Of a stretch of DNA of 50,341 nucleotides, positions 1-18,579 are shown piece after piece. Made by a program: the position numbers and the translations under genes. The first letter of the stretch is position 1. Every line of letters begins with the position of its first letter. The notes beneath the pieces are model-generated. The model ran no database searches. It worked only from the letters and a program-made list of their open reading frames with translations, and was not told the DNA's origin. The stretch is from Burkholderiales bacterium PBB2. GTDB taxonomy: Bacteria > Pseudomonadota > Gammaproteobacteria > Burkholderiales > Burkholderiaceae_C. The stretch lies in NCBI GenBank assembly GCA_002255955.1, contig NKIM01000034.1:1-50341 (forward strand), in the 5' to 3' direction.

Positions 1-136
1 AGAGCGCAGCGGAGCGGCTCAGGCGCGTGTACTCACGCGCTTCAAGCGCTGACTCGGCGCCACTGTTTGACCGCAGTGAGCGCAGCGAACGGAGGGAGTT
101 TGGCGCCGCTGAGCCGCGCAGTGAGCAGCGAGGGAA

Positions 137-156
137 GTCGGCTCGCTCGAGCCGAC
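137..156. repeat. Perfect inverted repeat (hairpin), 9-bp arms
   Basis: The arms GTCGGCTCG and CGAGCCGAC are separated by CT. No T-tract follows on either side, so it is not a canonical intrinsic terminator. It sits about 250 bp upstream of phnC. It could be a transcript-end hairpin of an upstream gene or a protein binding site. Confidence 0.5.
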
Positions 157-281
157 CCGCGAACCATGAGCACGGCGGCGGGCCGAGCCACCGCAGCGAG
201 AACGATCCCACACCAAAGGTCCGCCACTTACCCCTTCCTGGTCAAGCCAGCCCCGTCACCGCGCCGACGCAGCCCCGCCAC

Positions 282-290
282 GAATCTTTC
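282..290 (+). promoter_or_regulatory. GAATCTTTC motif shared with the phnF/phnG intergenic region
   Basis: The 9-bp word lies 113 bp before the phnC start. The same word occurs in the opposite orientation at 8077-8085, inside a Pho-box-like direct repeat between phnF and phnG. The extended sequence here (CTTTCAC, then a weak CTGCCTA half) only loosely resembles a Pho box. Sharing between two phn control regions is what makes it notable; the protein that binds is inferred, not shown. Confidence 0.3.
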
Positions 291-402
291 ACACAAGCTG
301 CCTAGCATCGCCGCAGCTCCACAGCGCCGCCGTTTCAGGCCCGGCCTTGTGGGCTGGATCGAAGTTCCCGACGGACGACAAAGCAAGCAAGCGAGGTGCG
401 GT

Positions 403-1278
403 ATGCAGCATGCCATCGAAGTGAATGCGCTGAGCAAGCGCTTTGGCGCGCGCCAGGCCCTGGACCAGGTCAGCCTGCAGCTGAGGCCCGGTGAGATGGT
501 GGCGCTGATCGGCGCCTCGGGCTCGGGCAAATCGACCCTGTTGCGCCACCTGTCCGGCTTTGTGGCGGGCGATGCCAGCTCGGGCGAGCTGCGCGTGATG
601 GGTCAGCTGGTGCAGTCGCAAGGCCGCATCGCCGCCAACATCCGCAGCGTGCGGGCCCAGATCGGCTTTGTCTTCCAGCAGTTCAACCTGGTCGGCCGCA
701 TGACGCTGCTGAACAATGTGCTGACCGGCCAACTGCACCGCATCCCGCTTCACCGCAGCCTGCTGCAGTGGTTCACCCGCGAGGAACGCGCCGCCGGCCT
801 GAAAGCGCTGGCCGAAGTTGGTATAGACGACTATGCCTTTCAACGCGCATCGACCCTTTCTGGCGGCCAGCAGCAGCGCGCCGCCATCGCGCGGGCCCTG
901 GTGCAAGGTGCCAAGGTGGTGCTGGCCGACGAGCCGATTGCCTCGCTGGACCCGGAATCCTCGCGCAAGGTGATGGACATGCTGGCCCGCGTCAACCGCG
1001 AGCATGGATGCACGGTGCTGGTGTCCCTGCACCAGGTCGATGTGGCGCTGCGCTACTGCAAGCGCGTGATTGCCATGCGCGATGGTCGGGTGGTGTTTGA
1101 CGGTCCCAGCAGCGCCCTCAACCCGGCCTTCCTCAACGAGCTCTACGCCAGCGATGCTGAGGCCCCGGCCCTGCCCAGCGGGCCCGAGAACCTGGACAGC
1201 CAACCCATGCCCCTGCCCGTGGCAGCGCCCGAGGCCCCGCGCGAGCCCGTGCCGGTTGCGGTGGCGGTGGCGGCCTGA
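403..1278 (+). CDS. phnC: Phosphonate ABC transporter ATP-binding protein PhnC
   Basis: ATPase of the phosphonate importer, working at the cytoplasmic membrane with PhnE and the binding protein PhnD. The 291-residue product starts at ATG 403, preceded by GAGGTG; the longer open frame upstream is low-complexity. Walker [10 protein letters not shown] lies at about 37-45, the signature LSGGQQQR in the middle, and Walker B is [12 protein letters not shown] followed by the switch His (SLHQVD). The order phnC-phnD-phnE is the usual one. Odd: a C-terminal Pro/Ala/Val-rich tail of about 35 residues after the ABC core, which is dispensable-looking and not usual for the family. Regulation is probably through Pho or PhnF sites upstream. 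Confidence 0.95.
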
Positions 1279-1337
1279 AGCCTCCCGCCCGCCCCATTTC
1301 ACCGTTTTCATTCCTGTTTGTTCATCGGAGATCCCCC

Positions 1338-2312
1338 ATGTTCCGCAAACTCCTGCTCGCGTCCTGCACCCTGCTGGCCAGCACCCTGAGCCACGCCCAG
1401 GACATCAACTTCGGCATCATCTCGACCGAATCGGCCGCCCACCTGAAAGCCGACTGGGCCCCCATCCTGGCGGACATGGAAGCCAAGACCGGCTACAAGG
1501 TCAAAGCCTTCTTCGCCAACGACTACGCCGGCATCATCGAAGCGATGCGCTTCAACAAGGTGCAGATGGCCTGGATGGGCAACAAGTCCGGCATGGAAGC
1601 CGTGGATCGTGCCGGCGGCGAAGTGTTCGCCCAAACCAGCTATGCCGACGGCGCCCTGGGCTACCACTCGCTGCTGATCACGCACAAAGAAAGCGGCATC
1701 AAGAACGTCGACCAGGTGCTCAAGAGCCCGCGCGAATACAACTACGGCGCCGGCGACCCGCAATCGACCTCGGGCACCCTGGTGCCAGGCTACTACCTCT
1801 ACGCCCTCAACGGCATCGACCCCAAGACCCACTTCAAGTCCAGCCGCGCCGGCAACCACGAGTCCAACCTGATGGCCACGGCCGCCAAGCAAGTCGATGT
1901 GGCCATCACCAACACCGAGGTGTTCGAGAAGTTCCAGAAGCGCGAGGCCGACAAGGCCAAGAACATCCAGATCCTGTGGAAGTCGCCCCTGATCGCCGCC
2001 GATCCCATGGTCTGGCGCGCCGACCTGTCGGCCGATATGAAGGCCAAGCTCAAGGGTTTCTTCCTCGGCTATGGCCGCGGTGAGTCCGAGCAGGCCAAGC
2101 GCGAGCTGGCCAACCTGGCCAAGCTGACCTTCGGCGTCTTCAACGAATCCAGCAACAAGCAGCTGGTGCCCTTCCGTCAGCTGGAGCTGTTCAAGGACAA
2201 GGCCAAGCTGGAAGCCGACGACAAGATGGACGCCGCCACCAAGCAAGGCAAGCTGGCCGAGATCCAGAAAAAGCTGGCCGAGCTGAACGCCCAGCTGGCC
2301 TCGGCCAAATAA
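1338..2312 (+). CDS. phnD: Phosphonate ABC transporter substrate-binding protein PhnD
   Basis: Periplasmic receptor that captures phosphonates and delivers them to PhnE. The 324-residue product has a clear Sec signal peptide (hydrophobic stretch LLLASCTLLAS, cleavage expected after SHA near residue 20), then the mature start QDINFGIIST. Family-typical segments include FFANDYAGIIEAM, the WMGNKSG region and GDPQSTSGTLVPGYY, which lines the ligand pocket. The C-terminal 50 residues are Lys/Ala-rich and probably helical. It lies 59 bp after phnC and 48 bp before phnE, clearly in one transcription unit. Length matches the family. Confidence 0.96.
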   Translation: MFRKLLLASCTLLASTLSHAQDINFGIISTESAAHLKADWAPILADMEAKTGYKVKAFFANDYAGIIEAMRFNKVQMAWMGNKSGMEAVDRAGGEVFAQTSYADGALGYHSLLITHKESGIKNVDQVLKSPREYNYGAGDPQSTSGTLVPGYYLYALNGIDPKTHFKSSRAGNHESNLMATAAKQVDVAITNTEVFEKFQKREADKAKNIQILWKSPLIAADPMVWRADLSADMKAKLKGFFLGYGRGESEQAKRELANLAKLTFGVFNESSNKQLVPFRQLELFKDKAKLEADDKMDAATKQGKLAEIQKKLAELNAQLASAK

Positions 2313-2360
2313 GCGCCCCGAAGCACGCGCACGCTGCCCCTACCTCTTGCTGAAACGGCC

Positions 2361-3173
2361 ATGAGCTCACGCCCCACCGCTTCTCTTCCCGCGCAGGCGC
2401 CCCACCCGAAACAGCCGCCGCGCGCCCACCTGGGCAGCCTGCTGCTCTGGGGCCTGGGCCTGGCCTTGCTGGCCTGGTCCTGGCGCGGCGCCGATATGCG
2501 CCCCGCCGCGCTCTGGGCGGATTCGGCCAATATGGCCAGCTTCGCCAAGGAGTTCTTCCCGCCCGACTTCAGCGAGTGGCGCACCTATGTGGCCGAGATG
2601 ATCGTCACCGTGCAGGTGGCCGTCTGGGGCACGGTGCTGGCCGTCATCTGCGCCGTGCCTTTTGGCCTGCTCAGCTCGGCCAATATCGCACCGGCCTGGC
2701 TGCACCAGCCGGTGCGCCGGCTGATGGATTCGGCCCGCGCGATCAACGAAATGGTGTTCGCCATGCTCTTCATCGTGGCGGTGGGTCTGGGGCCTTTTGC
2801 CGGCGTGCTGGCCCTGTGGGTGCACACCACGGGTATTCTGGCCAAGCTCTTCTCCGAGGCGGTGGAGTCCATCGACCCGCGCCCGGTCGAGGGCATACGC
2901 GCCACTGGCGCCAATGCGCTGGAAGAAATCGTCTACGGCGTGATCCCGCAGGTGATGCCACTGTGGGTGTCCTACACCCTCTACCGCTTCGAGTCGAATG
3001 TGCGCTCGGCCTCGGTCGTGGGCATGGTGGGTGCGGGCGGCATCGGCGTCATCCTCTACGAGGTGATCCGCAGCTTCCAATACGCCCACACCGCCGCGGT
3101 GATGCTCATCATCATCGCCTTCGTCACCGGCATCGATCTGATCTCGGCGCGCATTCGCAAGGTGCTGATCTGA
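2361..3173 (+). CDS. phnE: Phosphonate ABC transporter permease PhnE
   Basis: Inner-membrane permease of the phosphonate importer. The 270-residue product has an N-terminal cytoplasmic segment, a first membrane helix (about 25-45), and a cluster of further helices; the EAA-like loop that contacts PhnC is visible in [21 protein letters not shown] (split across about residues 175-195). A single phnE is present, whereas some species have two. The stop codon overlaps the start of the following transferase gene (TGATG), implying translational coupling. Start ATG 2361 is the first in the frame and fits the family N-terminus. Confidence 0.95.
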
Positions 3174-3847
3174 TGACGAGTTACCACATCGCAGCCCACA
3201 ATCTGCCCGAGCCGGTGCGCCTGAGCGAGGCACCGACCCTGGCCCATGACGCCATCGTGCGCGACAGCCGCTTCGGCCGCTGGTGCGAAGTCGGCGCCAG
3301 CACGCGCATCGAGCACAGCGTCTTCGGTGACTACAGCTATGTCGGCCACCACGCCGACATCATGGCCGCCGACATCGGCAAGTTCGTCAACATCGCCAAT
3401 CTGGTGCGGATCAACCCGGGCTTCCATCCGGTCGAGCGCCCCTGCCTGCATCACATCCTCTACCGCGGCAGCATGTATGGCGAGGGCTTTGGCGAAGACG
3501 ACGCCGAGCTTTTCCACTGGCGCCGCCTGCAGCGCGTCAGCATCGGCCACGATGTCTGGCTGGGCCACGGCGTGGTCATCATGCCCGGCGTCAAGATCGG
3601 CCATGGCGCCGTGATCGGCAGCGGCAGCATCGTCACCCGCGACGTGCCCGCCTGGACGATTGCCGCCGGCAACCCCTGCCGCCCTATCCGCCCCCGCTTC
3701 ACCCCCGCCATCGGCCGCGCCATCGAAGCCGTGGCCTGGTGGGACTGGTCGCACGAGGAGCTGCAGGTACGACAGGACGAACTCAAGGACGTTCGCCGAA
3801 TGCTGGCCGCGCATGAGCGGCGCCAGACCGGCATCCGCGGCAGCTGA
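3173..3847 (+). CDS. Phosphonate-locus hexapeptide-repeat acetyltransferase-like protein
   Basis: The 224-residue product belongs to the left-handed beta-helix (hexapeptide repeat) transferases, of the subgroup commonly found inside phn operons. Repeats such as VGHHADIMAADIGKFVNIAN and IGHDVWLGHGVVIMPGVKIG form the helix coils, and AGNPCRPIRPRF near the C-terminus is the usual end of such trimeric enzymes; the coils include a His-rich segment (GHDVWLGHG). Start ATG 3173 overlaps the phnE stop, so it is co-translated with the transporter. Substrate is unknown: acetylation of an aminoalkylphosphonate is a reasonable guess, not proven. A hairpin starts at its stop codon. Confidence 0.88.
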   Translation: MTSYHIAAHNLPEPVRLSEAPTLAHDAIVRDSRFGRWCEVGASTRIEHSVFGDYSYVGHHADIMAADIGKFVNIANLVRINPGFHPVERPCLHHILYRGSMYGEGFGEDDAELFHWRRLQRVSIGHDVWLGHGVVIMPGVKIGHGAVIGSGSIVTRDVPAWTIAAGNPCRPIRPRFTPAIGRAIEAVAWWDWSHEELQVRQDELKDVRRMLAAHERRQTGIRGS

Positions 3848-3878
3848 ATGGCGCCCGGCCTCCCGGCCGCGATTCAGC
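3843..3878. terminator. Hairpin at the end of the phnCDE-transferase unit
   Basis: Arms GCTGAAT (3843-3849) and ATTCAGC (3872-3878) pair perfectly and enclose an inner GGCC-rich stem. The upstream arm includes the TGA stop of the transferase gene. No T-run follows, so it is either a weak or factor-assisted terminator or an mRNA 3'-end stabiliser. It lies between convergent genes. Confidence 0.4.
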
Positions 3879-4012
3879 CCGGGGGCTCGATCTCGCCTTG
3901 CACCGTCACTGCCGCAGCAGGAAGCCCGGCCTGAGCCTGCCACGGCCCGCCGCTGAAGCTCGCGTGATGAGGGGGCAGGCGCGGGATTTGTTGCTGGAGG
4001 TGTCCATACCGC

Positions 4013-4390
4013 TCACATGCCCTCCGGCCGGTGGCACACCGCCTCAATATTGTGGCCATCGGGGCCGATGACAAAGGCCGCGTAGTAATGGGCGTGGTAC
4101 TGCGGTCGCAGGCCCGGCGAACCATGGTCACGGCCGCCTGCCGCCAGCGCCGCCGCGTAAAAGGCATCCACCTGCGCACGCGTCTCGGCCTTGAAGGCCA
4201 GATGCAAAGGCGCCGGCCGCTCCTGTGTCTCGAACAAGCACAGCGAGGCGTCCCCGCTGCCACAAAGCTCCACCCCATAGCTGGACTCGCCCTCGCCGCC
4301 CAGACTGACGCCGAGCGGCGCCAGGGCCTGCAGGAAAAAGCGTTTGCTGGCGGCGTAGTCGCTGACGCCGATCTTGACGTGATCGAACAT
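4013..4390 (-). CDS. VOC-family (glyoxalase/dioxygenase fold) protein
   Basis: The 125-residue product has a single vicinal-oxygen-chelate domain. It opens with MFDHVKIGVSDYAASKRFF, has a central HLAFKAETRAQVDAF segment and closes with YYAAFVIGPDGHNIEAVCH, the usual beta-alpha-beta-beta-beta halves. Candidate metal ligands are His4, the His in HLAF and the Glu in NIEAV. Such proteins are often annotated as lactoylglutathione-lyase-like or fosfomycin-resistance-like, but nothing here fixes the substrate. It is convergent with the hexapeptide transferase gene and divergent from the RGS-like gene, with 42 bp between starts. Confidence 0.87.
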   Translation of the reverse strand: MFDHVKIGVSDYAASKRFFLQALAPLGVSLGGEGESSYGVELCGSGDASLCLFETQERPAPLHLAFKAETRAQVDAFYAAALAAGGRDHGSPGLRPQYHAHYYAAFVIGPDGHNIEAVCHRPEGM

Positions 4391-4432
4391 GGTGGCCTTT
4401 CTTGAACCTGCTGCTCTTGCGGTCCATCCAGA

Positions 4433-5095
4433 ATGCCGCGCAAGTTCGAGCGCTTGCAGTTGCAGCAGCGGGTGGCGGGATTATTCCCGCCGAACTGCAA
4501 ACTCGCGTGTTTCGGACCTGGATTCAACGCTGATTCAACGGTGGGGGCGGAGCCTATCGCTCGTCTCTTGCTTCAAGCTCTACGCGCCAAGTCCACCACC
4601 TACCACCTCCACGAGATCGACGGCAAATTCGAGCTGCTGGCCGCCAACCCGCAGACCCTCGCCCGCTTCGCCTGTTTCTGCGTCAAGGAGTTTTCCACCG
4701 AAAACCTCCTCGCCTTCCTGCTGCTGCAATACATCGACTGCCGCGCCACTGCGGGGTACGACGTGGGCAACGAGTTCGGTGTCCTCCATGATGATTTCCT
4801 GCTCAAGGACAGCGCTTTGGAAGTGAACATCCAGAGCAAGGTGAGGCAGGTGATCTCACTCCAAACATTCAGCCAACCAGAACGCGAGTTTCGACTTGCT
4901 CTGCTCACTGACCTGACCGGCAACCTCAATGACACATGGTCCCGCTACAGTTTAAGCAACAAGCCCAACCCAGACGCGCAGTACCCGAAGGGATTCAGGA
5001 GGCCGAGGACTATCCCCAGCAAGGACATCATGACTGCCTATCTGACGGTGCGGCGCATAGCCGGTAAGGGCCCCCATCCCGCAAGGCAGAAGTAG
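4433..5095 (+). CDS. RGS-domain-like protein in low-GC island (hypothetical)
   Basis: The 220-residue product resembles the eukaryotic regulator-of-G-protein-signalling fold over residues about 65-176. EFSTENLLAF (86-95) corresponds to the E-[YF]-S-x-E-N hallmark, DDF (120-122) and EVN (130-132) to the [ND]-E-F...E-V-N block, and DTWSRY (167-172) to the D-S-Y-R-R-F block. Residues E90, N91, N132, D167 and R171 line up by eye with RGS4 E87, N88, N128, D163 and R167, which contact Galpha. The first 50 residues look unstructured and the true start may be further downstream. Base composition is visibly lower in GC than its neighbours, suggesting transfer into the phn region. There is no signal peptide or membrane segment. 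Function in a bacterium is unknown. Confidence 0.7.
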   Translation: MPRKFERLQLQQRVAGLFPPNCKLACFGPGFNADSTVGAEPIARLLLQALRAKSTTYHLHEIDGKFELLAANPQTLARFACFCVKEFSTENLLAFLLLQYIDCRATAGYDVGNEFGVLHDDFLLKDSALEVNIQSKVRQVISLQTFSQPEREFRLALLTDLTGNLNDTWSRYSLSNKPNPDAQYPKGFRRPRTIPSKDIMTAYLTVRRIAGKGPHPARQK

Positions 5096-5204
5096 CAGCA
5101 GCGCTTTGCCCGAAAGCAGGCCCACCGCATCAGACATTGAAGCCCGCACTTCACCGTTGAGCAAGGCCTGCGCGTCGCAGCTTGCCCCCTCCACGCAGCC
5201 TGAG

Positions 5205-5954
5205 TCAGGCGGAAAGCAAGTAACGCCGCACGCAAACGAAATCCGCGCCCGGCTCCGCCTCGACGAACAGGCCGAGAGCATCGATGCACAAAGGCTGATC
5301 AGCCACGGGCGCGCAAGCGCGCTGCAAGGCCACCTCGACCCCGGCCAGTTGCTCGGCATCAAGCGCGTCGCTGAGGGTCAAGTGGAAGCGAAACGCTTCC
5401 ATCACAAAGGGGTAGCCCCAGCGCTGCAGCAAGGCCTCCTGCTCGGAGCTGAGGCCGGCGCTGCGGCGGCGCTGCAGCTCGGCCAGGCTGGGCGAGCGGC
5501 GAAAGGGATCAAGCGATTGCACGCAGTCACTGGCCAGATCCATCAGGCGCTGGTTCACCGGGTGCTCCGCATGCGCGGTCGCATCATTCAGATGCGGGCG
5601 CCAGGCCAGGAAGTTGTGCAGGCGTGCCGGGCGCACCGGCAGCTCGAAGGCCGCATGGCGAGCGGCCAGGGAGTGCAGCGCCGCGTCCAGTTCCTCGAAA
5701 CTGCAGCCCTCGGCCAGCTCGAACGGCGGCTTGAGCGTGGCATGCAGGCCGTAGCGCCGCGCGCTGCGGCACAGGGCGGCGCGGGCCTCAGCCTCCAGCC
5801 CACCGAGAGACTCGGGAGGCAAGACGCGGCCGGGCTGCAGGGCATCGCGCCCCAGCCAGCGCGCACCCAGCTCGGCGTGCGGGCTGTCCGCCGCCGGCGC
5901 AAAGTAGACGGCATAACGGTGCACCGTGGCGGGCAGTGGGTGCAAGGCGCTCAC
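5205..5954 (-). CDS. DUF1045 protein, 2H-phosphoesterase-like, phosphonate locus
   Basis: The 249-residue product is the phosphonate-operon protein commonly called DUF1045. It carries two HxT motifs, HATLKPPF near residue 70 and FHLTLSD near residue 193, the signature of the 2H phosphoesterase fold (RNA ligase/cyclic phosphodiesterase-like). The start is GTG 5954, overlapping the phnM-paralogue stop as GTGA, so translation is coupled. A plausible role is hydrolysis of a cyclic ribose phosphate produced by C-P lyase, the job PhnP does in E. coli; this is inference from the fold and location. phnP itself is not in the window. Confidence 0.85.
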   Translation of the reverse strand: MSALHPLPATVHRYAVYFAPAADSPHAELGARWLGRDALQPGRVLPPESLGGLEAEARAALCRSARRYGLHATLKPPFELAEGCSFEELDAALHSLAARHAAFELPVRPARLHNFLAWRPHLNDATAHAEHPVNQRLMDLASDCVQSLDPFRRSPSLAELQRRRSAGLSSEQEALLQRWGYPFVMEAFRFHLTLSDALDAEQLAGVEVALQRACAPVADQPLCIDALGLFVEAEPGADFVCVRRYLLSA

Positions 5955-7117
5955 AGCAGACGCTCGCCTTCAGCCAGATAGACGATGCGGCCGGCGCAAA
6001 GCGTGGCCACCAGACGCGGGCGGCTGGGGTCCTGGGCATCGACCACCAGCACATCGGCGCGGCGGCCGGCGCTGAGCTGGCCGCGGTCGTGCAGACCCAG
6101 GGCCTGGGCCGGGTTGGCCGAGACCAGCTCCCAGGCCGCGGCAAACGGCATCACCTCGTCCTGCGCCAGCTTGAAGGCGGCATGCAGGGGCGCGGGGTAG
6201 TAGTAGTCGGACGCGAGGATCTTGCACAGGCCAGCGCCGGCCAGATCGGCCGCGCGCGGGGCGCCGACATGGCTGCCGCCACGCAGCACATTGGGCGCGC
6301 CGCAGACCACGGGCGAGCGCTCGGCGCTGGCCATGGCCGCCACCTCGGTGCTCAAGGGGAACTCGGAGATGCCGCAGCCCAGGGCCTGGAAACGCGCCCG
6401 GGTGGCCAGGCTGTCGTCGTCGTGCGAGGCCATGGGGATGCCCAGCCGCCGGCACTCGGCCGCCAGGCGCTCGATCAGGGCCGGCACCTCGGCGCCGCGC
6501 GCCGCGGCCTTCTCCAGCAGGGCGATGAAGCCGGCGCCGTCGGTGCCGGCGCGGTCGGCATAGTCCTGCAGCTTTTTGTCCAGCTTCCTGCGCATCATGG
6601 GCAGATGCTCGTTGAAGGCCAGCAGGCCAATGCGGCCGCTGCGCAGCCATTCCATGGCCTGGTCTTCGCCTTCGATGTTGTGGCACTCGAAGCGCAGATG
6701 CAGGCGGTGGTCCACCAGCAGGCGGCCCTCCAGCGAATCGAGCGCAGCCAGCAGCTCGCGCGCCGTGTCGCCGCCGCGCAGGCCGCCTTCCCAGGAATAG
6801 GTCAGGCCATGCAAGGCGGTGGTGATGCCATTGCTGGCCAGCTGCCGGTCGGTCTCCAGCAAGGCCAGATCGAGCGGGAAATGCACGCCGGGGCGCGGCA
6901 TGATCTGGCGCTCGAAGGCATCGCCGTGGAAATCGACGATGCCCGGCAGCACCAGGCAGCCGCTGGCGTCCAGGCCCGGGCCGGGCAAGGCGCTGTCGAC
7001 CAGGCGACCGTTCTGGATGCCCAGCACCAGTTCGTTCTCCTGCCATTGCTGGCCAGGGCGCAAGACCTGGCCCCCGCGGATGGTGGACAAGGCGGCAACG
7101 CGTTGGGGGCTCAGCAT
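5951..7117 (-). CDS. phnM: PhnM paralogue, amidohydrolase-family ribose methylphosphonate triphosphate diphosphatase
   Basis: A 388-residue amidohydrolase-superfamily protein of the PhnM type, expected to release pyrophosphate from ribose-1-phosphonate 5-triphosphate. Metal-binding segments are VDFHGDAFER, FECHN, LLAFNEH and ASHDDDS, and ASDYYYPAPL near the end. It is clearly a second, divergent copy: the operon copy at 12860-14026 has HCDAVEKE and SHDDDDP. I chose ATG 7117 because the family similarity begins a few residues later and the length then equals the other copy; in-frame starts also exist at 7144, 7171 and TTG 7174. It lies between phnF and DUF1045, all leftward. Confidence 0.88.
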   Translation of the reverse strand: MLSPQRVAALSTIRGGQVLRPGQQWQENELVLGIQNGRLVDSALPGPGLDASGCLVLPGIVDFHGDAFERQIMPRPGVHFPLDLALLETDRQLASNGITTALHGLTYSWEGGLRGGDTARELLAALDSLEGRLLVDHRLHLRFECHNIEGEDQAMEWLRSGRIGLLAFNEHLPMMRRKLDKKLQDYADRAGTDGAGFIALLEKAAARGAEVPALIERLAAECRRLGIPMASHDDDSLATRARFQALGCGISEFPLSTEVAAMASAERSPVVCGAPNVLRGGSHVGAPRAADLAGAGLCKILASDYYYPAPLHAAFKLAQDEVMPFAAAWELVSANPAQALGLHDRGQLSAGRRADVLVVDAQDPSRPRLVATLCAGRIVYLAEGERLL

Positions 7118-7248
7118 GGCAAGGCTCACTTCTCTCGTCTTCGGCATCACTTCAATCGATCGATCGATCATCAACAGAGTCTGTTCGCGATCGCCAGCCT
7201 AGCGCGGGGCTTTGACAGGGGCATGACGCGATTGGGCCGGCCTCACCA

Positions 7249-8022
7249 TCAGGGCTCGAACACCAGCTGCACCCAGTCACCACTGAACTGTGCCAGCGTG
7301 TGCTGGAACACCCGCCCTTGCTCGCTGCAGCAGTTGACCGAGTCGACCAGCAGCACCGGGCGCGAGCGCGGCTGAGCCAGCAGGCGCGCGGCCTCGGCAT
7401 CGGGCATGGCGGCCATCACCCGGGTCTGGCCGCGGGTGTAGTCCTGCACGCCGAAATGCTGCAAGGCCTGGGTGATGGAGCCGGTCTCGCGCAGCAGCAC
7501 GTCCAGGCCGGCGAAGCGGGCCGCCTCGAAGCTGTGCCGGGCCAGATTGATGGCGCGCGGCGCTGCCGCATCCTGCCCGCCGCTGCCCGCGCCGGCATGA
7601 CCCAGGGTCAGCAGCTGCAGCAGCGGCGTGCCCGGCGCCAGCTCCAGGGCCTGAGCCAGCTCGGGCGTAGCCGGCAGCTCGCTGGCGCGCAGCAACTCGA
7701 TGCGCCCACTGCGGCCCTGTCCGCTGAGGTTCTGCGAGAAGCGCGTGCGCTTGCCCACGCTGTAGGCAATCGCATGCTCCTGCACAAAAGTGCCGCGGCC
7801 CTGCTCCACGCGCAGCAAACCTTCGCGCTCCAGCACGCCCAGTGCACGGCGCACCGTGTGGCGGTTGCAGCCGAAGCGTTCGGCCAACTCGGTTTCGTTG
7901 GGGATGCGCTCACCCGCGGCGTAATGCCGCTCGCGGATGTCGCGCAGCAGCGCCGCCTCGATCTGGCGCCACACCGCCACGCCGGTGCCTCGTTCCACCA
8001 CCTGGCCACGCTGCTCTTGCAT
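7249..8022 (-). CDS. phnF: GntR/HutC-family phosphonate regulator PhnF
   Basis: The 257-residue product has a GntR winged helix (about residues 14-80: WRQIEAALLRDIRERHYAAG, NETELAERFGCNRHTVRRAL, EGRGTF-like wing) followed by a UTRA effector-binding domain (about 95-250, with RARF-like FSQNLSGQGRSG and VDSVNCCSEQGRVFQHT). It is read divergently from the C-P lyase operon and heads the leftward group with the second phnM and DUF1045. It most probably represses phn transcription and is released by a phosphonate-derived or phosphate ligand. The palindrome at 8146-8157 is a likely operator. Confidence 0.92.
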   Translation of the reverse strand: MQEQRGQVVERGTGVAVWRQIEAALLRDIRERHYAAGERIPNETELAERFGCNRHTVRRALGVLEREGLLRVEQGRGTFVQEHAIAYSVGKRTRFSQNLSGQGRSGRIELLRASELPATPELAQALELAPGTPLLQLLTLGHAGAGSGGQDAAAPRAINLARHSFEAARFAGLDVLLRETGSITQALQHFGVQDYTRGQTRVMAAMPDAEAARLLAQPRSRPVLLVDSVNCCSEQGRVFQHTLAQFSGDWVQLVFEP

Positions 8023-8069
8023 GCTGAGTCTCTATTCCCTGGATCACGGTTGCCAAACAGCTTAGAGAC

Positions 8070-8087
8070 GATTCACGAAAGATTCAT
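8070..8087. promoter_or_regulatory. Pho-box-like direct repeat between phnF and phnG
   Basis: Two 7-bp copies, GATTCAC and GATTCAT, are separated by GAAA, so the repeat period is 11 bp, as in PhoB binding sites (7-bp repeats with a 4-bp AT-rich spacer). The match to the E. coli repeat consensus CTGTCAT is only partial. The spacer region contains the complement of the GAATCTTTC word seen before phnC. PhoB control of phn operons is well established in other bacteria; here it is inferred. Confidence 0.4.
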
Positions 8088-8145
8088 GTCGGCCCTGAAG
8101 AATGCGCCGCATCGCCAGGGCTTGCCGGCACATGGCCGCCGCAAG

Positions 8146-8157
8146 TCGTCTAGACGA
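8146..8157. promoter_or_regulatory. Perfect 12-bp palindrome, candidate PhnF operator
   Basis: TCGTCTAGACGA is its own reverse complement and lies 24 bp before the phnG start and 124 bp before the divergent phnF start. GntR/HutC-type repressors commonly bind palindromes with a GTnTAnAC-like core, which this matches. Position suggests repression of phnG and possibly autoregulation of phnF. Confidence 0.55.
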
Positions 8158-8181
8158 TTAGATGCTTTGACGGGATCCGAC

Positions 8182-8661
8182 GTGTCATCACACATCCCTC
8201 TCGCGGCAGCGCAGGACGCACGCCGCCACGCCCTGGGCCTGCTGGCCCGCGCCCGGCCCCAGGATCTGGAGCAGCAGCTGGCCGAGCTGCAGCCCCTGCC
8301 CCACTTTGAATGGCTGCGCCGGCCCGAGACCGGCATGCTGATGATGCGCGGCCGCCTCGGCGGTGCCGGCCAGGTTTTCAATCTGGGCGAAGCCACCGTC
8401 ACTCGCTGCACCTTGCGTCTACAGGCAGCGGGCCTGCCGGCCAGCGTCGGCGTGGGCACCGTGCGCGGCAGCGACCCGCGCCATGCCGAGCTGGTCGCTC
8501 TGGCCGACGCCCTGCTGCAAACGCCCGACTGGGCGCCGCAGCTGCAAGCCCGGCTCTTGCGCCCCCTGGCCGAGGCCGAACAAGACCGCCACGCGCGCCG
8601 CGCCGCCGAAGTGGCGCGCAGCAAGGTGGATTTCTACACCCTGGTGCGGGGCGAGGACTGA
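8182..8661 (+). CDS. phnG: C-P lyase core subunit PhnG
   Basis: The 159-residue product is the small PhnG subunit of the PhnGHIJ C-P lyase core complex, which transfers the ribosyl triphosphate to the phosphonate. Typical segments are ARARPQDLEQQL, RPETGMLMMRGRLGG and FNLGEATVTRCTL, and the conserved ending ARSKVDFYTLVRGED. I chose GTG 8182 as start because it places SSHIPLAAAQDARRHA at the N-terminus and gives the family length (about 150); no in-frame ATG occurs nearby. It is the first gene of the rightward operon and lies 4 nt before phnH. Confidence 0.92.
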   Translation: MSSHIPLAAAQDARRHALGLLARARPQDLEQQLAELQPLPHFEWLRRPETGMLMMRGRLGGAGQVFNLGEATVTRCTLRLQAAGLPASVGVGTVRGSDPRHAELVALADALLQTPDWAPQLQARLLRPLAEAEQDRHARRAAEVARSKVDFYTLVRGED

Positions 8662-8664
8662 GCC

Positions 8665-9318
8665 ATGAGCATGAGCATGAGTGATGCGATGAACGCGAGC
8701 GCCCCCGCCGCCGGCCTGCGCCTCGAGCAGCTGCTGCCCGGCTTTGCCGACCCGGTGCATGACGCGCAGCAGGCCTTCCGCTGCCTGCTGGACGCCATGT
8801 CCCGGCCCGGCAGCCTGCAAAGCCTGCCTTTTGAATTGAGCGCACCCGCCGGCCTGCAGCCGGCCTTGACCGCCCTGCTGCTGGCCCTGGCCGACCGCGA
8901 CACGCCGCTGTGGCTGCCGCCCGGGCTGCGCAGCGGCGCCGCGGGGGAGCACCTGCGCTTCCATGCCGGCTGCCCCTTGGTCTCGGAGATGGGCGCGGCT
9001 CAGTTCCTGATGCTGCAGAACCTGGACGCGCTGCCGACGCTGGACGAGCTGCGCCTCGGCGATGCCGCCTACCCGGACCGTTCGGCCACCTTGTTCATCG
9101 AGGTGCCAGCGCTGGAAACGGGCAGCGGCCCGCTGCGCCAGCGCGGCCCCGGCATCCAGGGCGAGACGCGCATCGACGTAGCCGGTTGGTCCGCGAGCAG
9201 CCAGGCTTTTGTGCAAGAAAACCGCCGGCGCTTCCCGCTCGGCGTGGACCTGGTGCTGTGCGCAGGTCGGCAGCTGCTGGCCCTGCCGCGCACCACCCTC
9301 ATCGATTGGGAGCTCTGA
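8665..9318 (+). CDS. phnH: C-P lyase subunit PhnH
   Basis: The 217-residue product is PhnH, a dimeric subunit of the C-P lyase core complex. Recognisable segments are LLPGFADPVHDAQQAFRCLLDAMSRPG (in the first 50 residues), PLWLPPGL, and the closing RFPLGVDLVLCAGRQLLALPRTT. The N-terminus begins with a tandem Met-Ser repeat with in-frame ATGs at 8665, 8671, 8677 and 8689, so the exact start is uncertain. It sits 4 nt after phnG and 2 nt before phnI, in one operon. Confidence 0.93.
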   Translation: MSMSMSDAMNASAPAAGLRLEQLLPGFADPVHDAQQAFRCLLDAMSRPGSLQSLPFELSAPAGLQPALTALLLALADRDTPLWLPPGLRSGAAGEHLRFHAGCPLVSEMGAAQFLMLQNLDALPTLDELRLGDAAYPDRSATLFIEVPALETGSGPLRQRGPGIQGETRIDVAGWSASSQAFVQENRRRFPLGVDLVLCAGRQLLALPRTTLIDWEL

Positions 9319-9319
9319 G

Positions 9320-10417
9320 ATGTACGTTGCCGTCAAAGGAGGCGAGCGCGCCATCGAGGCCTCGCGCGAGCTGCTGGCCCAGGCGCGCCGGGGAGACAGC
9401 GCCCGGCCCGAGCTCAGCATCGAGCAGATCAAGCAGCAGCTGCGCCTGGCCGTGGACCGCGTGATGTGCGAAGGCGCGCTCTACGACGAGGACCTGGCCG
9501 CCCTGGCGATCAAGCAGGCACGCGGCGACTTGATCGAAGCGATCTTTCTGCTGCGCGCCTACCGCACCACCCTGCCGCGCCTGAGCGACAGCGAACCTCT
9601 GGACACCGGCCGCATGCGCCTGGAGCGCCGCATCTCCTCGGCCTTCAAGGACCTGCCCGGCGGCCAGCTGCTGGGCCCCAGCTTCGACTACACCCAGCGC
9701 CTGCTGGACTTTGGCCTGATGCGCGAGTCCTCCGGCAGCAGCGAGGCGCAGTCCTCTCACAGCGCCGCCCGCGCCGAGCCGCTGCACGCGCCCCGCGTGA
9801 CCGATCTACTCAGCCGCGAGGGCCTGCTGGAAGCGGCCGAGCCGGAAGCACCCGGCGCCCCGCCGCCGCCCGACCTGACCCGCGAGCCCCTGCTCTTCCC
9901 GGCCGACCGCGCCACCCGCATGCAGAACCTGGCACGCGGCGACGAGGGCTTTTTGCTCGCCCTGGCCTACAGCACCCAGCGCGGCTATGCCACCACCCAC
10001 CCGTTTGCGGCCGAGCTGCGTTACGGCGCCGTGCCGGTGGAGATGCACATCGAGGAGCTGGGCTTCGCGGTCGAGATCGGCGAGGTCGAGCTGACCGAGT
10101 GCCAGCTGATCAATGAGTTCCACGGCAGCGCCGACACCGCGCCGCAGTTCACCCGCGGCTACGGCCTGGCCTTCGGCCACGCCGAACGCAAGGCTCTGGC
10201 CATGGCCCTGGTCGACCGCTCGCTGCGCGCCGAGGAGTTTGGCGAAGACAGCGAGCTGCCCGCCAACAACGTGGAGTTCGTGCTCTCGCACAGCGACAAC
10301 GTCGAGGCCTCGGGCTTTCTGCAGCATCTGAAGCTGCCGCACTACGTGGACTTTCAAACCAATCTTGAGCTGCTGCGGCGCTTGCGGGCGGAGTGGGACA
10401 AGGAGCAAGCGAAATGA
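9320..10417 (+). CDS. phnI: C-P lyase core subunit PhnI
   Basis: The 365-residue product is PhnI, the nucleosidase-like subunit that replaces adenine of ATP by the phosphonate within the PhnGHIJ complex. It starts MYVAVKGGERAIEAS, with the conserved IEQIKQQLRLAVDRVM and the later GYATTHPFAAELRYG, GYGLAFGHAERKAL and NVEFVLSHSDNVEASGF segments. The initiator ATG at 9320 lies just after the phnH stop; the frame extends upstream, but only within phnH. The stop overlaps the phnJ start by ATGA. Confidence 0.95.
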   Translation: MYVAVKGGERAIEASRELLAQARRGDSARPELSIEQIKQQLRLAVDRVMCEGALYDEDLAALAIKQARGDLIEAIFLLRAYRTTLPRLSDSEPLDTGRMRLERRISSAFKDLPGGQLLGPSFDYTQRLLDFGLMRESSGSSEAQSSHSAARAEPLHAPRVTDLLSREGLLEAAEPEAPGAPPPPDLTREPLLFPADRATRMQNLARGDEGFLLALAYSTQRGYATTHPFAAELRYGAVPVEMHIEELGFAVEIGEVELTECQLINEFHGSADTAPQFTRGYGLAFGHAERKALAMALVDRSLRAEEFGEDSELPANNVEFVLSHSDNVEASGFLQHLKLPHYVDFQTNLELLRRLRAEWDKEQAK

Positions 10418-11304
10418 GCAGTGGGTACAACTTTGCCTACTTGGACGAGCACACCAAGCGCATGATCCGCCGCGCCCTGCTCAAGGCCGTAGCCCTGCCC
10501 GGCTACCAGGTGCCCTTCGGCGGCCGCGAGATGCCTCTGCCCTATGGATGGGGCACCGGCGGCATCCAGGTCACGGCCGCGGTGATCGGCCAGAGTGACT
10601 GCCTCAAGGTCATCGACCAGGGCGCGGACGACACCACCAATGCGGTCAACATCCGCAGCTTCTTCCAGAAGGTGACCGGCGTGCGCACCACCGAGGCCAC
10701 GCGCGAGGCCACGCTGATCCAGACCCGCCACCGCATCCCCGAGACGCCGCTGCAGGACGGGCAGATCCTGGTCTTCCAGGTGCCCATCCCCGAGCCGCTG
10801 CGCTGGCTGGAGCCACGCGAGACCGAGACCCGCACCATGCACGCGCTGAGCGAATACGGCGTCATGCACGTGAAGTTGTTCGAGGACATCGTGCGCCACG
10901 GCCGCATTGCCACCACCTACGACTACCCCGTGATCGTCAACGGCCACTACCTGATGCGGCCCTCGCCCATCCCCAAGTTCGACAACCCAAAGCTGCACCA
11001 GAGCCCGGCCCTGCAGCTCTTCGGCGCCGGCCGCGAGAAGCGGGTCTACGCCGTGCCGCCCTACACCGATGTGCGCTCGCTCGATTTCGAGGACCACCCG
11101 TTTGCCATCGAACGCTGGAGCGAGCCTTGCGCCCTGTGCGGCGCCACCGAGTCCTATCTGGACGAGATCATCCTCGACGACCAGGGCCAGCGCATGTTCG
11201 TCTGTTCCGACACCGAATACTGCAACACGCGCCAAGCCGAGGGCCACCGCGGCACGCAGAACAGCCCCACCAGCGCTGCTGACCTGGCAGGAGCGCAGGC
11301 ATGA
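10414..11304 (+). CDS. phnJ: Radical SAM C-P lyase PhnJ
   Basis: The 296-residue product is PhnJ, the radical S-adenosylmethionine enzyme that cleaves the carbon-phosphorus bond. The unusual cluster motif C-x2-C-x21-C is intact: Cys239, Cys242 and Cys264, and the further catalytic cysteine sits six residues on at Cys270 (CSDTEYC). The N-terminal MSSGYNFAYLDEHTKRMIRR and PYGWGTGGIQVT are hallmark sequences. Both ends overlap neighbours by ATGA (phnI upstream, phnK downstream). All catalytic cysteines being present, the pathway should be functional. Confidence 0.97.
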   Translation: MSSGYNFAYLDEHTKRMIRRALLKAVALPGYQVPFGGREMPLPYGWGTGGIQVTAAVIGQSDCLKVIDQGADDTTNAVNIRSFFQKVTGVRTTEATREATLIQTRHRIPETPLQDGQILVFQVPIPEPLRWLEPRETETRTMHALSEYGVMHVKLFEDIVRHGRIATTYDYPVIVNGHYLMRPSPIPKFDNPKLHQSPALQLFGAGREKRVYAVPPYTDVRSLDFEDHPFAIERWSEPCALCGATESYLDEIILDDQGQRMFVCSDTEYCNTRQAEGHRGTQNSPTSAADLAGAQA

Positions 11305-12074
11305 GCCGCCCCCTGCTGCAAGTCCGCGGCCTGGCCAAGCGCTACGGCGCCCGCATCGGCTGCGAAGGCATTGACCTCGATCTCTACCCCGGCGAGGTGC
11401 TGTGCATCGCGGGTGAATCGGGCTCGGGCAAATCGACCCTGCTCAACACCCTGGCCTTCCAGCTGCAGCCCGATGAAGGCCTGATCCAGTACGACCTGAA
11501 GGACCGCGGCCTCACCGACCTCGGCAAGCTGACCCAAGCCCAGCTGCGCGAGCTCTGGCGCACCGACTGGGGCTTTGTGCGCCAGAACCCGCGTGACGGC
11601 CTGCGCATGCAGGTCTCGGCCGGCGCCAATATCGGCGAGCGGCTGATGGCCGTGGGCGCACGGCATTACGGCGACATCCGCGGCGCGGCGGCCGACTGGC
11701 TGGCGCGCGTGGAGATCCCGGCCGAGCGCCTGGACGACGCGCCCAAGAGCTTCTCCGGCGGCATGCAGCAGCGCCTGCAGATCGCCCGCAACCTGGTCAG
11801 CCGCCCACGCCTGGTCTTCATGGATGAACCCACGGCCGGCCTCGATGTCTCGGTGCAGGCGCGCTTTCTGGACCTGCTGCGCGGCCTGGCCGCCGAGCTG
11901 GACCTGGCCGTGATCCTGGTGACCCACGACCTGGCCGTGGCCCGCCTGCTGGCCCAGCGCCTGATCGTCATGCGCCACGGCCGCATCGTCGAAACCGGCC
12001 TGACCGACCAGGTGCTGGACGACCCGCAGCACCCCTACACCCAGCTGCTGGTGTCTTCGGTATTGGCCGCATAA
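11301..12074 (+). CDS. phnK: C-P lyase-associated ABC-type ATPase PhnK
   Basis: The 257-residue product is the ABC ATPase that docks on the C-P lyase core rather than on a membrane transporter. Walker A is GESGSGKST, the signature is FSGGMQQR, and Walker B is RLVFMDEPTAGLD with the switch His in LVTHDLAV. The subfamily-specific QNPRDGLRMQVSAGANIGERLMAVG stretch (around 95-120) separates it from dipeptide transporter ATPases, its nearest relatives. It overlaps phnJ by ATGA and lies 14 nt before phnL. Confidence 0.94.
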   Translation: MSRPLLQVRGLAKRYGARIGCEGIDLDLYPGEVLCIAGESGSGKSTLLNTLAFQLQPDEGLIQYDLKDRGLTDLGKLTQAQLRELWRTDWGFVRQNPRDGLRMQVSAGANIGERLMAVGARHYGDIRGAAADWLARVEIPAERLDDAPKSFSGGMQQRLQIARNLVSRPRLVFMDEPTAGLDVSVQARFLDLLRGLAAELDLAVILVTHDLAVARLLAQRLIVMRHGRIVETGLTDQVLDDPQHPYTQLLVSSVLAA

Positions 12075-12088
12075 AGGAACCACGAGAC

Positions 12089-12832
12089 ATGTCTACCCAC
12101 AAGCAGCCCGCTCTTGAAGTCCGCGACCTGAGCAAGACCTTCACCCTGCACCAGCAAGGCGGCCTGGAGCTGCCGGTGCTGAACGCGGTGTCCTTCGAAG
12201 TCCACGCCGGCGATTGCCTGGTGCTGGACGGCCCCTCGGGCGCGGGGAAAAGCAGCCTGCTGCGCTGCCTCTACGGCAACTACCTGGCCAGCAGCGGCGA
12301 GATCCTGCTGCGCTCCGCGGGCAGCGATGAGATCCTGGACCTCTGCTGCATCAGCCCACAGCGGCTCACGGCTCTGCGCCGCGACACCGTGGGATATGTC
12401 AGCCAGTTCCTGCGCGTGATTCCGCGCGTGAGCAGCCAGGCCATCGTGGCTGAGCCTCTGCAAGCCCTGGGCGCCGGACGCGAGGAAGCCATGCAGCGCG
12501 CGGCCGAGCTGCTGGCGCGCCTGAACCTGCCCGAGCGGCTCTGGGGCCTACCACCGGCCACCTTCTCGGGCGGCGAGCAGCAGCGCGTCAATATCGCGCG
12601 CGGCTTCATCGCCCCCAAGCCCCTCTTGCTGCTGGACGAACCGACCGCCTCCCTGGACGCGGCCAACCGCGCCGTCGTCATCGCCCTGATCCGCGAGGCC
12701 TGCGCCGCCGGCCAGGCCGTGGTCGGCATCTTTCATGACGCCGAGGTGCGCGAGGCCGTGGCCACGCAGCGCCTTCCCCTGCAAGCCCTGAGCTCAGCCG
12801 CAAGCCACGCCGAGATGGCGATGGCCGCCTGA
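12089..12832 (+). CDS. phnL: C-P lyase-associated ABC-type ATPase PhnL
   Basis: The 247-residue product is PhnL, the second ABC-type ATPase of the C-P lyase system, which binds with PhnK to the core complex. Walker A is GPSGAGKSS, signature FSGGEQQR, Walker B LLLLDEPTASLD with His in GIFHDAEV. The segment TVGYVSQFLRVIPRVS is typical of PhnL. ATG 12089 is preceded by AAAGGAA. It is followed by phnM after 27 nt. Confidence 0.94.
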   Translation: MSTHKQPALEVRDLSKTFTLHQQGGLELPVLNAVSFEVHAGDCLVLDGPSGAGKSSLLRCLYGNYLASSGEILLRSAGSDEILDLCCISPQRLTALRRDTVGYVSQFLRVIPRVSSQAIVAEPLQALGAGREEAMQRAAELLARLNLPERLWGLPPATFSGGEQQRVNIARGFIAPKPLLLLDEPTASLDAANRAVVIALIREACAAGQAVVGIFHDAEVREAVATQRLPLQALSSAASHAEMAMAA

Positions 12833-12859
12833 ACATTGCCCGCGAAAGAAGTGCACACG

Positions 12860-14026
12860 ATGAACACCGCCTCCCCGCTCTACCTCACCCATGCCCACAT
12901 CGTCCTGGCCGAGCAGGAGCTGCACGACGCCTCGTTGCTGATCGGTGCCGACGGCCGCATCGCCGCCATCAACCCCGAGTCCGGCGGCGGCGCGCCCGAG
13001 CTGAGCCTGAGCGGCCAATGGCTGCTGCCCGGCATGGTGGACCTGCACTGCGACGCGGTGGAAAAAGAGGTTGAGCCGCGCGCCCGCGTGCTCTTCCCCC
13101 TGGACTTCGCCTGCATCAATATCGACCGCCGCAATGCCGCGGCCGGCATCACCACGCCCTACCATGCGCTGTCCTTCGCCCATGCCGAATGGGGCGTGCG
13201 CAACAACGAGACTGCCACCGAGCTGGTGCGCGCCCTGCGCCGCCTGAAGGCCCATGAGCTGATTGACAACCGCGTCCATGTGCGCTACGAGATCACCGAC
13301 CTCAGTGCTCTGCCCCATGTGCTGGGGCTGTTGGACGAAGGCGGCGTCGATCTGCTCTCCATCATGGACCACACACCGGGCCAGGGTCAGTTCAAGCATC
13401 TGGACAGTTATGTCGCCTACATGATGGGCAACCACGGCAGCAGCCAGCAAGCCGCCCTGCAAATGGCCGAGGAAAAGATGCAGGCCCGCCAAAGCGCCGA
13501 CGAGCGCGTGCTGGCCGTGATGGAGCGCGCCAAGCAGCGCGGCGTACCCACCGCCAGCCATGATGACGACGACCCGCAGCGCGTGTTGACCATGAAGAGC
13601 CTGGGCGCCCGCATGAGCGAGTTCCCCATCAATCTGGACACCGCCCGCGCCGCCCATGCCGCCGGCCTGGCCACCATCCTGGGCGCGCCCAATGTCATGC
13701 GCGGCGGCAGCCAGAGCGGCAATATGCGCGCCCTCGACGCCATCCACGCCGGCGTGGCCGACTGCCTCTGCGCCGACTACGCGCCCGCCACCATGCTGGC
13801 CGCCGTCGATGCCCTGGTCCATCGCGAAGGCCTGGGCCTGCCCCAAGCCACCCGCCTGGTCAGCCTGGGCCCGGCGCGCGCCGCTGGCTTGAACGACCGC
13901 GGCGAGATCGCCGTCGGCCTGCGCGCCGACCTGATCAGCGTGGCCCGGCCCGGTGGACAGGCGGCGGTGGAGCGCGTCTGGTGCGCGGGCAAGCCGGTGT
14001 TTGCCGTGGACTACCAAGGCCGCTGA
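12860..14026 (+). CDS. phnM: Alpha-D-ribose 1-methylphosphonate 5-triphosphate diphosphatase PhnM
   Basis: The 388-residue amidohydrolase removes pyrophosphate from the ribosyl triphosphate phosphonate before C-P cleavage. Metal sites are visible as VDLHCDAVEKE, the lysine/Asn region VHVRYEITD, SIMDHTPGQGQF and ASHDDDDP, with CADYAPATML late in the chain. ATG 12860 is preceded by GAAAGAAG and gives the family length; a TTG eight codons earlier is less likely. It ends the phnGHIJKLM operon. A second, divergent PhnM lies at 5951-7117; this copy is closer to the classical enzyme by motif. Confidence 0.95.
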   Translation: MNTASPLYLTHAHIVLAEQELHDASLLIGADGRIAAINPESGGGAPELSLSGQWLLPGMVDLHCDAVEKEVEPRARVLFPLDFACINIDRRNAAAGITTPYHALSFAHAEWGVRNNETATELVRALRRLKAHELIDNRVHVRYEITDLSALPHVLGLLDEGGVDLLSIMDHTPGQGQFKHLDSYVAYMMGNHGSSQQAALQMAEEKMQARQSADERVLAVMERAKQRGVPTASHDDDDPQRVLTMKSLGARMSEFPINLDTARAAHAAGLATILGAPNVMRGGSQSGNMRALDAIHAGVADCLCADYAPATMLAAVDALVHREGLGLPQATRLVSLGPARAAGLNDRGEIAVGLRADLISVARPGGQAAVERVWCAGKPVFAVDYQGR

Positions 14027-14115
14027 AGCTGAAGGTTTGCGAGCCTGGCCGGAGAGCGGGCGAGAATACTGCAGGTCTGCGGCATTCTCGTCTTCAAGCA
14101 CCCCTCTCGCCTGCC

Positions 14116-16171: not shown

Positions 16172-16181
16172 CGAGAAACAG

Positions 16182-16219
16182 AAAAGCGCCCGGGTTTCGA
16201 GTTCGGGCGCTTTTCTTCT
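16182..16219 (+). terminator. Rho-independent terminator after the GNAT gene
   Basis: An 11-bp stem, AAAAGCGCCCG pairing with CGGGCGCTTTT, encloses an 11-nt loop and is followed by CTTCTTTG. It lies 10 bp after the stop codon. The A-run on the left also makes it usable in the reverse direction. Confidence 0.9.
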
Positions 16220-16220
16220 T

Positions 16221-16239
16221 TGACTCGATCCACGAGTCA
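16221..16239. repeat. Short perfect inverted repeat
   Basis: TGACTCG and CGAGTCA flank ATCCA just after the GNAT terminator. The GTGACTC word reappears near 16,426 beside the phaB stop. No role assigned. Confidence 0.4.
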
Positions 16240-16389
16240 CAACAAACACAGGCTCCAGCGGATGGTGGGCGTTTTGACTCCACCACCCCGGCCGGCCCGC
16301 GCGAGACGCGGCCCGGCGTGATCAGGGCGAGGCTGCAGCCTGTCCCTTTCTCTCCCCAGCCAGCCCACGCAAGATGTGGGCTGTCGTTC

Positions 16390-18521: not shown

Positions 18522-18579
18522 TTTCCAACTCCAGGGTGAGACTGCCTCTGGCCAGCGCCCGCGAATCAAGCACCAACAG

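What the first reader, a model, noticed from the sequence alone, without database searches (positions are those of the whole stretch)
4433..5095. A bacterial protein with an RGS domain signature inside a phosphonate locus
Residues 65-176 align by eye with RGS4: EFSTENLLAF with E-Y-S-E-E-N, DDF...EVN with N-E-F...EVN, and DTWSRY with D-S-Y-R-R-F. Five residues that contact Galpha in RGS4 (E87, N88, N128, D163, R167) correspond to E90, N91, N132, D167 and R171. RGS domains are essentially eukaryotic, and bacteria lack heterotrimeric G proteins. The gene also has lower GC than both neighbours and interrupts the phn genes, suggesting acquisition from elsewhere. Its bacterial partner may be a small GTPase or something new.
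Basis: partly seen in the sequence, partly recalled or inferred. Interest (0 to 1): 0.82.

Follow-up and report, generated by a model that had tools for sequence, protein, structure and literature searches.

The report
Orphan bacterial protein resembling RGS domains
A lone bacterial gene encodes a protein whose middle part resembles the RGS domains with which animals, fungi and plants switch off G proteins; the likeness is probably real but falls below the usual acceptance score, and its fold and function remain untested.

Summary
RGS is the only Pfam match (E 0.014; domain alone 0.0037), but 16-18 bits is under Pfam's cut-off of 23.9. Of 24 PDB sequences matched, 22 are RGS domains. Shuffles, reversal and other frames score far lower. 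Against: Pfam scores near 17 bits also arise by chance, much of the signal lies in one motif, single-sequence AlphaFold models were poor with no meaningful RGS match, and no convincing homologue was found. The gene shares a variable slot between convergent phosphonate blocks with a glyoxalase-family gene. The genome has no recognisable G-alpha but carries an injectisome. Best reading: a laterally acquired, divergent RGS-like domain that may act on a eukaryotic G-alpha. It cannot be filed as an RGS family member.

The parts
4433..5095 (+). Orphan gene, 220 aa, with an RGS-like middle. Start uncertain (ATG 4433; in-frame alternatives TTG 4454, TTG 4460, GTG 4472, GTG 4541, TTG 4568)
   Evidence: translation, codon statistics, start contexts in the first 70 codons
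4625..4948 (+). RGS-like domain, residues 65-172
   Evidence: phmmer to GAIP 65-172; alignment A1 with one single-residue gap; Pfam RGS on residues 57-183: E 0.0037, 18.1 bits, cut-off 23.9
4700..4705 (+). Codons of E90-N91, matching the RGS4 pair E87-N88 (RGS4 numbering from the finding and recall)
   Evidence: invariant in all 7 rows of A1
4826..4828 (+). Codon of N132, matching RGS4 N128
   Evidence: N in 3 and S in 3 of the 6 RGS rows
4931..4945 (+). Codons D167 to R171 (DTWSR), matching D-S-Y-x-R of RGS (RGS4 D163 and R167)
   Evidence: D and R in 4 of 4 full-length RGS rows; fixed-register score of residues 147-172 reached by 108 of 20,000 shuffles and best of 25 registers (3.25; next best 0.25)
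4433..4624 (+). N-terminal 64 residues, no family match
4949..5095 (+). C-terminal 48 residues, no family match; the RGS rows used end at residue 172, so the last RGS helix was not compared
3816..5241 (.). Variable slot between convergent phn blocks: 1426 bp here; same-genus G009 has about 11.3 kb there with no match to it
   Evidence: blastn of window 1-14000 against L029
4013..4390 (-). VOC/glyoxalase-family gene in the same slot, divergent from the RGS-like gene
   Evidence: Pfam PF00903, E 5.3e-10

Best explanation
The gene encodes a divergent RGS-like helical domain (residues 65-172) with short unrelated ends, acquired laterally into a variable slot beside the phosphonate genes. SHOWN: frame, coding bias, similarity, position, and no relative found in the genomes and collections searched. 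INFERRED: it shares ancestry with eukaryotic RGS domains (about 0.65) and keeps their working surface, so it would bind the switch regions of a G-alpha subunit and speed GTP hydrolysis. As the bacterium has no recognisable G-alpha but has an injectisome, the likeliest target is a G-alpha of a eukaryotic host or grazer, reached by type III secretion. That last step rests on circumstance alone.
For: RGS the only Pfam hit, E 0.014, or 0.0037 for the domain. 22 of 24 PDB sequences matched are RGS, best E 0.004. hhalign against six RGS sequences: P 1.2e-6, probability 91%, residues 66-143. No shuffle among 20,000 reaches the score; Smith-Waterman z 7 to 12 against four RGS domains. An HMM of RGS17, CG5036 and RGS8 only, found through GAIP rather than picked directly by this protein, gives 18.0 bits, P 1.6e-7. 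Hydropathy correlates with RGS (r 0.41) only in the aligned register: 0 of 5000 permutations, and the other 20 registers give -0.20 to 0.21. All five named G-alpha-contact residues are present. G-alpha family: 0 over cut-off in the own genome. Injectisome: SctV and SctC over cut-off; SctN, SctD and SctL the best matches of their proteins but under their own cut-offs.
Against: Under Pfam's cut-off. PF00615 scores of 17.2-17.6 bits arise as noise in 2 of 698 genome searches (1 of 300 at E <= 0.01; 1 of 398 at E <= 0.02, plus 1 of 14 control genomes; samples overlap), and G000 itself was not listed at E <= 0.02. Masking EFSTEN cuts the score from 22.9 to 9.8 bits; residues 144-180 alone score -1.8, and 22-56% of shuffles of that stretch do as well in local alignment. 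C-terminal hydropathy in the aligned register is r 0.06, lower than in several other registers (0.49 at +5). AF2 mean pLDDT 35 and 57; Foldseek has nothing at E <= 0.001, no RGS in the 50 rows shown of 252 for the domain, and for the full length only p115RhoGEF RGS at rank 21, E 6.3, which is noise. No convincing homologue. No PIP-box-like site (recalled motif) near the gene. The injectisome lies on another contig.
Confidence: 0.4

Rival explanations
1. Chance resemblance: an unrelated orphan helical protein with a run (EFSTENLL, then DDF...EVN) that happens to suit RGS profiles.
For: Sub-threshold Pfam score; noise hits at 17.2-17.6 bits, one of them in an open frame that I read as CsgE-like; loss of most signal on masking EFSTEN; poor models with no meaningful RGS match; no family to confirm the residues.
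Against: That noise protein scores 3.5 bits on the RGS HMM against 22.9 here, and z 0.3-4.0 against 7.0-11.6. The next best of 249 window frames scores -0.5, and the best of 972 frames of other loci 3.5. C-terminal motif in register.
Confidence: 0.28
2. A genuine RGS-like fold that now serves inside the bacterium, as a protein-binding helical module or a regulator of a bacterial GTPase, with no host target.
For: Some eukaryotic RGS-like domains (axin, GRKs) are scaffolds without GAP activity (recalled). No secretion signal or regulatory site was shown. The gene sits beside metabolic genes.
Against: The named residues that make an RGS a GAP are kept. No Ras/MglA-sized candidate partner in the own genome.
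Confidence: 0.25
3. Non-functional remnant or unexpressed frame within foreign DNA.
For: No clear Shine-Dalgarno at any of six candidate starts, no terminator and no + strand promoter-like site found in 3800-5300, weak coding bias at both ends.
Against: Open frame with clear codon bias over about residues 41-140.
Confidence: 0.07

Closest known systems
RGS domain, Pfam PF00615 (GAIP/RGS19, RGS17, Drosophila CG5036, RGS2, RGS8, RGS16)
   Same: Alignment of residues 65-172 with one single-residue gap, 21-26% identity; nine columns invariant in all seven rows (F66 F79 F82 E86 S88 E90 N91 L96 E130); D-T-W-x-R-Y in place of D-S-Y-x-R-F
   Different: Bacterial, below Pfam's cut-off, F-W-L of the RGS rows replaced by A-F-L, fold unproven; the last RGS helix was not compared
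Type III secreted effectors that mimic eukaryotic GTPase regulators (recalled as a class; none fetched)
   Same: A eukaryotic-type regulator in a bacterium with an injectisome
   Different: Those recalled act on small GTPases; here the expected target is a heterotrimeric G-alpha, and secretion is untested

Membership tests
RGS domain (PF00615) | Score over Pfam's gathering cut-off (23.9 bits) | tested here: not met
   16.2 bits whole protein, 18.1 bits domain alone; 17.5 in the six-frame search of the own genome
RGS domain (PF00615) | Alignment over the RGS box without large indels | tested here: met
   residues 65-172, one single-residue gap; HMM local alignments cover only about 66-147; the last helix was not compared
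RGS domain (PF00615) | G-alpha contact residues E, N, N, D, R (RGS4 E87, N88, N128, D163, R167; numbering from the finding and recall) | tested here: met
   E90, N91, N132, D167, R171
RGS domain (PF00615) | Nine-helix RGS bundle | tested here: inconclusive
   AF2 domain model: seven helices, mean pLDDT 57, no RGS in the rows shown; full-length pLDDT 35
RGS domain (PF00615) | Conserved relatives with the same residues | tested here: not met
   no relative found (one search gave only two weak, probably chance matches)
RGS domain (PF00615) | GAP activity on or binding to G-alpha | not testable with these tools
   needs protein
RGS domain (PF00615) | Cognate G-alpha in the same genome | tested here: not met
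   0 of 9 matches at E <= 1 over cut-off; best 14.4 bits against 48.8
Type III secreted effector | Non-flagellar injectisome in the genome | tested here: met
   SctV 710.2 bits summed over the frame, cut-off 692.25; SctC 413.9, over cut-off 238.45; SctN 567.9 against 604.75, SctD 62.6 against 86, SctL 54.9 against 78.7, all under cut-off
Type III secreted effector | Co-regulation with the injectisome (PIP box TTCGB-N15-TTCGB, recalled; not known to be used by this organism) | tested here: inconclusive
   22 matches with one mismatch in the window, 17.9 expected; none between 1630 and 7011
Type III secreted effector | Injectisome-dependent secretion | not testable with these tools
   needs experiment

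The most novel reading that the evidence does not exclude
A bacterium has taken up and streamlined a eukaryotic RGS domain and injects it to switch off heterotrimeric G-protein signalling in its host or grazer: an RGS-mimic effector acting directly on G-alpha as a GAP.
Probability: 0.2. Interest if true: 0.88.

Novelty: new variant of a known kind. Interest (0 to 1): 0.52.

Why it matters
RGS domains are treated as a eukaryotic invention tied to G-alpha (established knowledge, recalled). A bacterial one would show that the domain can leave eukaryotes, would point to a direct bacterial way of damping host G-protein signalling, and would give a small soluble RGS for mechanistic work. In 698 searches of genomes of the same order and phylum with PF00615 (overlapping samples) none passed the cut-off, so even one proven case would be notable.

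Tried and rejected
Structure by AlphaFold2: full length gave mean pLDDT 35 and a random-looking Foldseek list (50 of 61 rows shown; p115RhoGEF RGS at rank 21, E 6.3). The domain alone gave one model at 57 and four at 38-41, with no RGS in the 50 rows shown of 252 (PDB) or 50 of 207 (viral).

Homologue searches that found nothing: genome contigs twice, viral contigs twice (19, 49), plasmids with the protein (10) and with an RGS8 domain (67), phages (11). The genome search with the protein: only G000 itself, 1 of 99 (8), 1 of 399 (50) and 1 of 398 (85); the samples overlap. With alignment A1, 3 of 274 (45): G000; G528 (20.5 bits, E 1.5e-4 for one genome, so about 0.04 over 274; model positions 130-184, in a frame of about 70 aa that holds DTFSRYSTS); and G586 (16.4 bits, positions 21-59, outside the RGS-like domain). 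I take both as chance, but G528 was read only as a translation (59) and not tested further. The pattern-based contig scans see only fairly close relatives.

NCBIfam, PADLOC: no match; PHROGs one at E 0.34. PF00615 noise hits: L028 has four stops; L032 is an open frame that I read as CsgE-like (recalled look; not searched by name).

Papers: ten searches, three of which returned nothing and two of which listed only 20 of 197 and 20 of 287 papers. I saw listings and starts of abstracts, and two passages of PMC4608122. Nothing seen described a bacterial RGS domain; only open-licence PMC papers are held, so this is weak evidence of absence.

The A2 HMM includes GAIP, RGS2 and RGS16 sequences picked because this protein matched them; one search repeats the test with only RGS17, CG5036 and RGS8 (found through GAIP), where the score falls from 22.9 to 18.0 bits.

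Full report
WHAT IS THERE. Window 4433-5095 (+) is an open frame of 220 codons. With a codon model from ten neighbouring genes it scores best of the six frames (-0.135 bits per codon; shuffles -0.97 +/- 0.13), with positive windows over about residues 41-140 and weaker ones at both ends. GC is 58.5% and GC3 75.6%, below each of the ten other genes measured (GC 62.2-71.3%, GC3 81-91%). So the frame is probably a gene and compositionally foreign. Its start is uncertain: none of six in-frame candidates has a clear Shine-Dalgarno sequence, and only 42 bp separate it from the divergent VOC gene.

THE RGS LIKENESS. Pfam gives one family for the whole protein, RGS, E 0.014, 16.2 bits, residues 66-147; for residues 57-183 alone E is 0.0037, 18.1 bits; the cut-off is 23.9. 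Of 24 distinct PDB sequences matched at E <= 10, 22 are RGS domains, the best GAIP/RGS19 at E 0.004 over residues 65-172; the other two are TT1467 protein. hhalign with six RGS sequences gives P 1.2e-6 and 91% probability over residues 66-143. MAFFT aligns residues 65-172 with four long RGS rows with one single-residue gap, and nine columns are invariant in all seven rows. The RGS rows end at the position of residue 172, so the last RGS helix was not compared.

IS IT MORE THAN CHANCE? An HMM of six RGS sequences scores 22.9 bits (25.1 for residues 61-180). Of 20,003 sequences given (20,000 shuffles of residues 61-180, the protein, its domain and its reverse), 17,073 were reported; the best shuffle scores 14.6 and the reverse -0.7. 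In the fixed register, residues 65-146 have z 8.2, and residues 147-172 z 2.8 (108 of 20,000 shuffles reach it), the best of 25 registers (3.25; next 0.25). Hydropathy correlates at r 0.41 over the domain only in the aligned register; in residues 147-172 alone it does not (r 0.06; 0.49 at register +5). A free local alignment of residues 144-180 with the RGS C-terminus is matched by 22-56% of shuffles. Among 249 window frames the next best scores -0.5, and the best of 972 frames of other loci 3.5. Limits: Pfam RGS scores of 17.2 and 17.6 bits turned up in 2 of 698 genome searches as evident noise (1 of 300 at E <= 0.01; 1 of 398 at E <= 0.02, where 1 of 14 control genomes also rang; samples overlap). 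So the Pfam score alone proves nothing, and G000 was not listed at E <= 0.02 although one search gave it 0.018. The noise protein L032 separates clearly on the finer test (3.5 against 22.9 bits). Masking EFSTEN lowers the score to 9.8 bits, and an HMM without the sequences picked by this protein gives 18.0 bits (P 1.6e-7; times 24,736 families about 0.004). I put shared ancestry with RGS at about 0.65.

STRUCTURE. AF2 from a single sequence gave mean pLDDT 35 for the whole protein and 57 for residues 57-183, in one of five models. The latter has helices at about residues 66-71, 73-86, 90-107, 112-123, 127-143, 148-162 and 165-172. Their order resembles my recollection of the RGS box, but Foldseek found nothing at E <= 0.001 and no RGS among the 50 rows shown. 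The full-length model met p115RhoGEF RGS only at rank 21, E 6.3. The fold question is open.

DISTRIBUTION. The protein was found only in its own genome: 1 of 99 relatives, 1 of 399 family and 1 of 398 phylum genomes, overlapping samples, and in none of the contig, plasmid or phage collections searched. A looser alignment search of 274 class genomes gave two further weak matches that I take as chance; one of them, G528 at E 1.5e-4 for that genome, covers the stretch with the DTWSRY motif in a frame of about 70 aa and was not tested further.

CONTEXT. The flanks are ordinary phosphonate genes: ABC ATPase, phosphonate-binding protein, permease and hexapeptide transferase on +; DUF1045, an amidohydrolase (phnM) and a GntR/UTRA regulator (phnF) on - (phn names by position and recall). 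Same-genus G009 matches the window at 86.8% over 1334-3815, 86.1% over 5242-7139 and 92.6% over 7248-9267, but holds about 11.3 kb where the window has 1426 bp, with no relative of this protein (best tblastn E 6.2). Of 17 other genus genomes, 11 matched some part of 3700-6000, and only G009 was compared in this detail. The slot is thus variable and the gene does not break an operon.

POSSIBLE PARTNERS. No G-alpha over cut-off in the own genome (best 14.4 bits, cut-off 48.8). The eight Ras-profile matches lie in frames of 408-1019 aa, three over cut-off, which I take to be housekeeping GTPases. The genome does carry a non-flagellar injectisome on another contig: SctV and SctC over cut-off; SctN, SctD and SctL matched but under their cut-offs. 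SctC is over cut-off in 2 of 18 genus genomes, G000 and G002. G002 is 76% complete and showed no relative of this protein. This makes a host-directed role possible, but nothing links the gene to the injectisome: no PIP-box-like site (recalled motif) between 1630 and 7011.

MECHANISM, COMMITTED. Most likely a divergent RGS-like domain, acquired laterally, that holds the switch regions of a eukaryotic G-alpha through E90/N91, N132 and D167/R171 and speeds its GTP hydrolysis. Shown: sequence likeness, retained residues, context. Inferred: fold, target, activity, delivery. Confidence 0.4 for the chain in this general form; 0.2 for the full injected-effector version.

MEMBERSHIP. It fails Pfam's cut-off and has no family around it, so I do not file it as an RGS protein; 'works like an RGS' stays open and is cheaply testable.

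Noticed in passing
window 46311-49298 (+): 995-aa frame with DUF4135 and LANC_like domains, the layout of a class II lanthipeptide synthetase (LanM, name recalled).
   Followed up: no
window 31432-39568 (+): ShlB/POTRA two-partner secretion transporter followed by a 2087-aa frame that may be its secreted partner (the large frame itself was not searched).
   Followed up: no
G000 contig C26, about 58.3-67.6 kb (L052, L053): Non-flagellar type III secretion genes (SctV and SctC over cut-off, weaker SctD, SctL, SctN matches); SctC over cut-off in only 2 of 18 genomes of the genus.
   Followed up: partly
L029 2561-13869 (G009): About 11.3 kb of other DNA in the same slot between the phn blocks of a same-genus genome; its genes were not identified.
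   Followed up: partly
window 8600-20000: Of 111 plasmid records matching this stretch, 5 match some part at 95-99% identity although the C-P lyase genes of the ten rows listed match at about 74%: a shorter, perhaps mobile, piece may lie here.
   Followed up: no
L032 1393-1785 (G894): Open frame that I read as CsgE-like gives 17.2 bits to Pfam RGS: a chance match, useful as a yardstick for weak RGS hits.
   Followed up: yes
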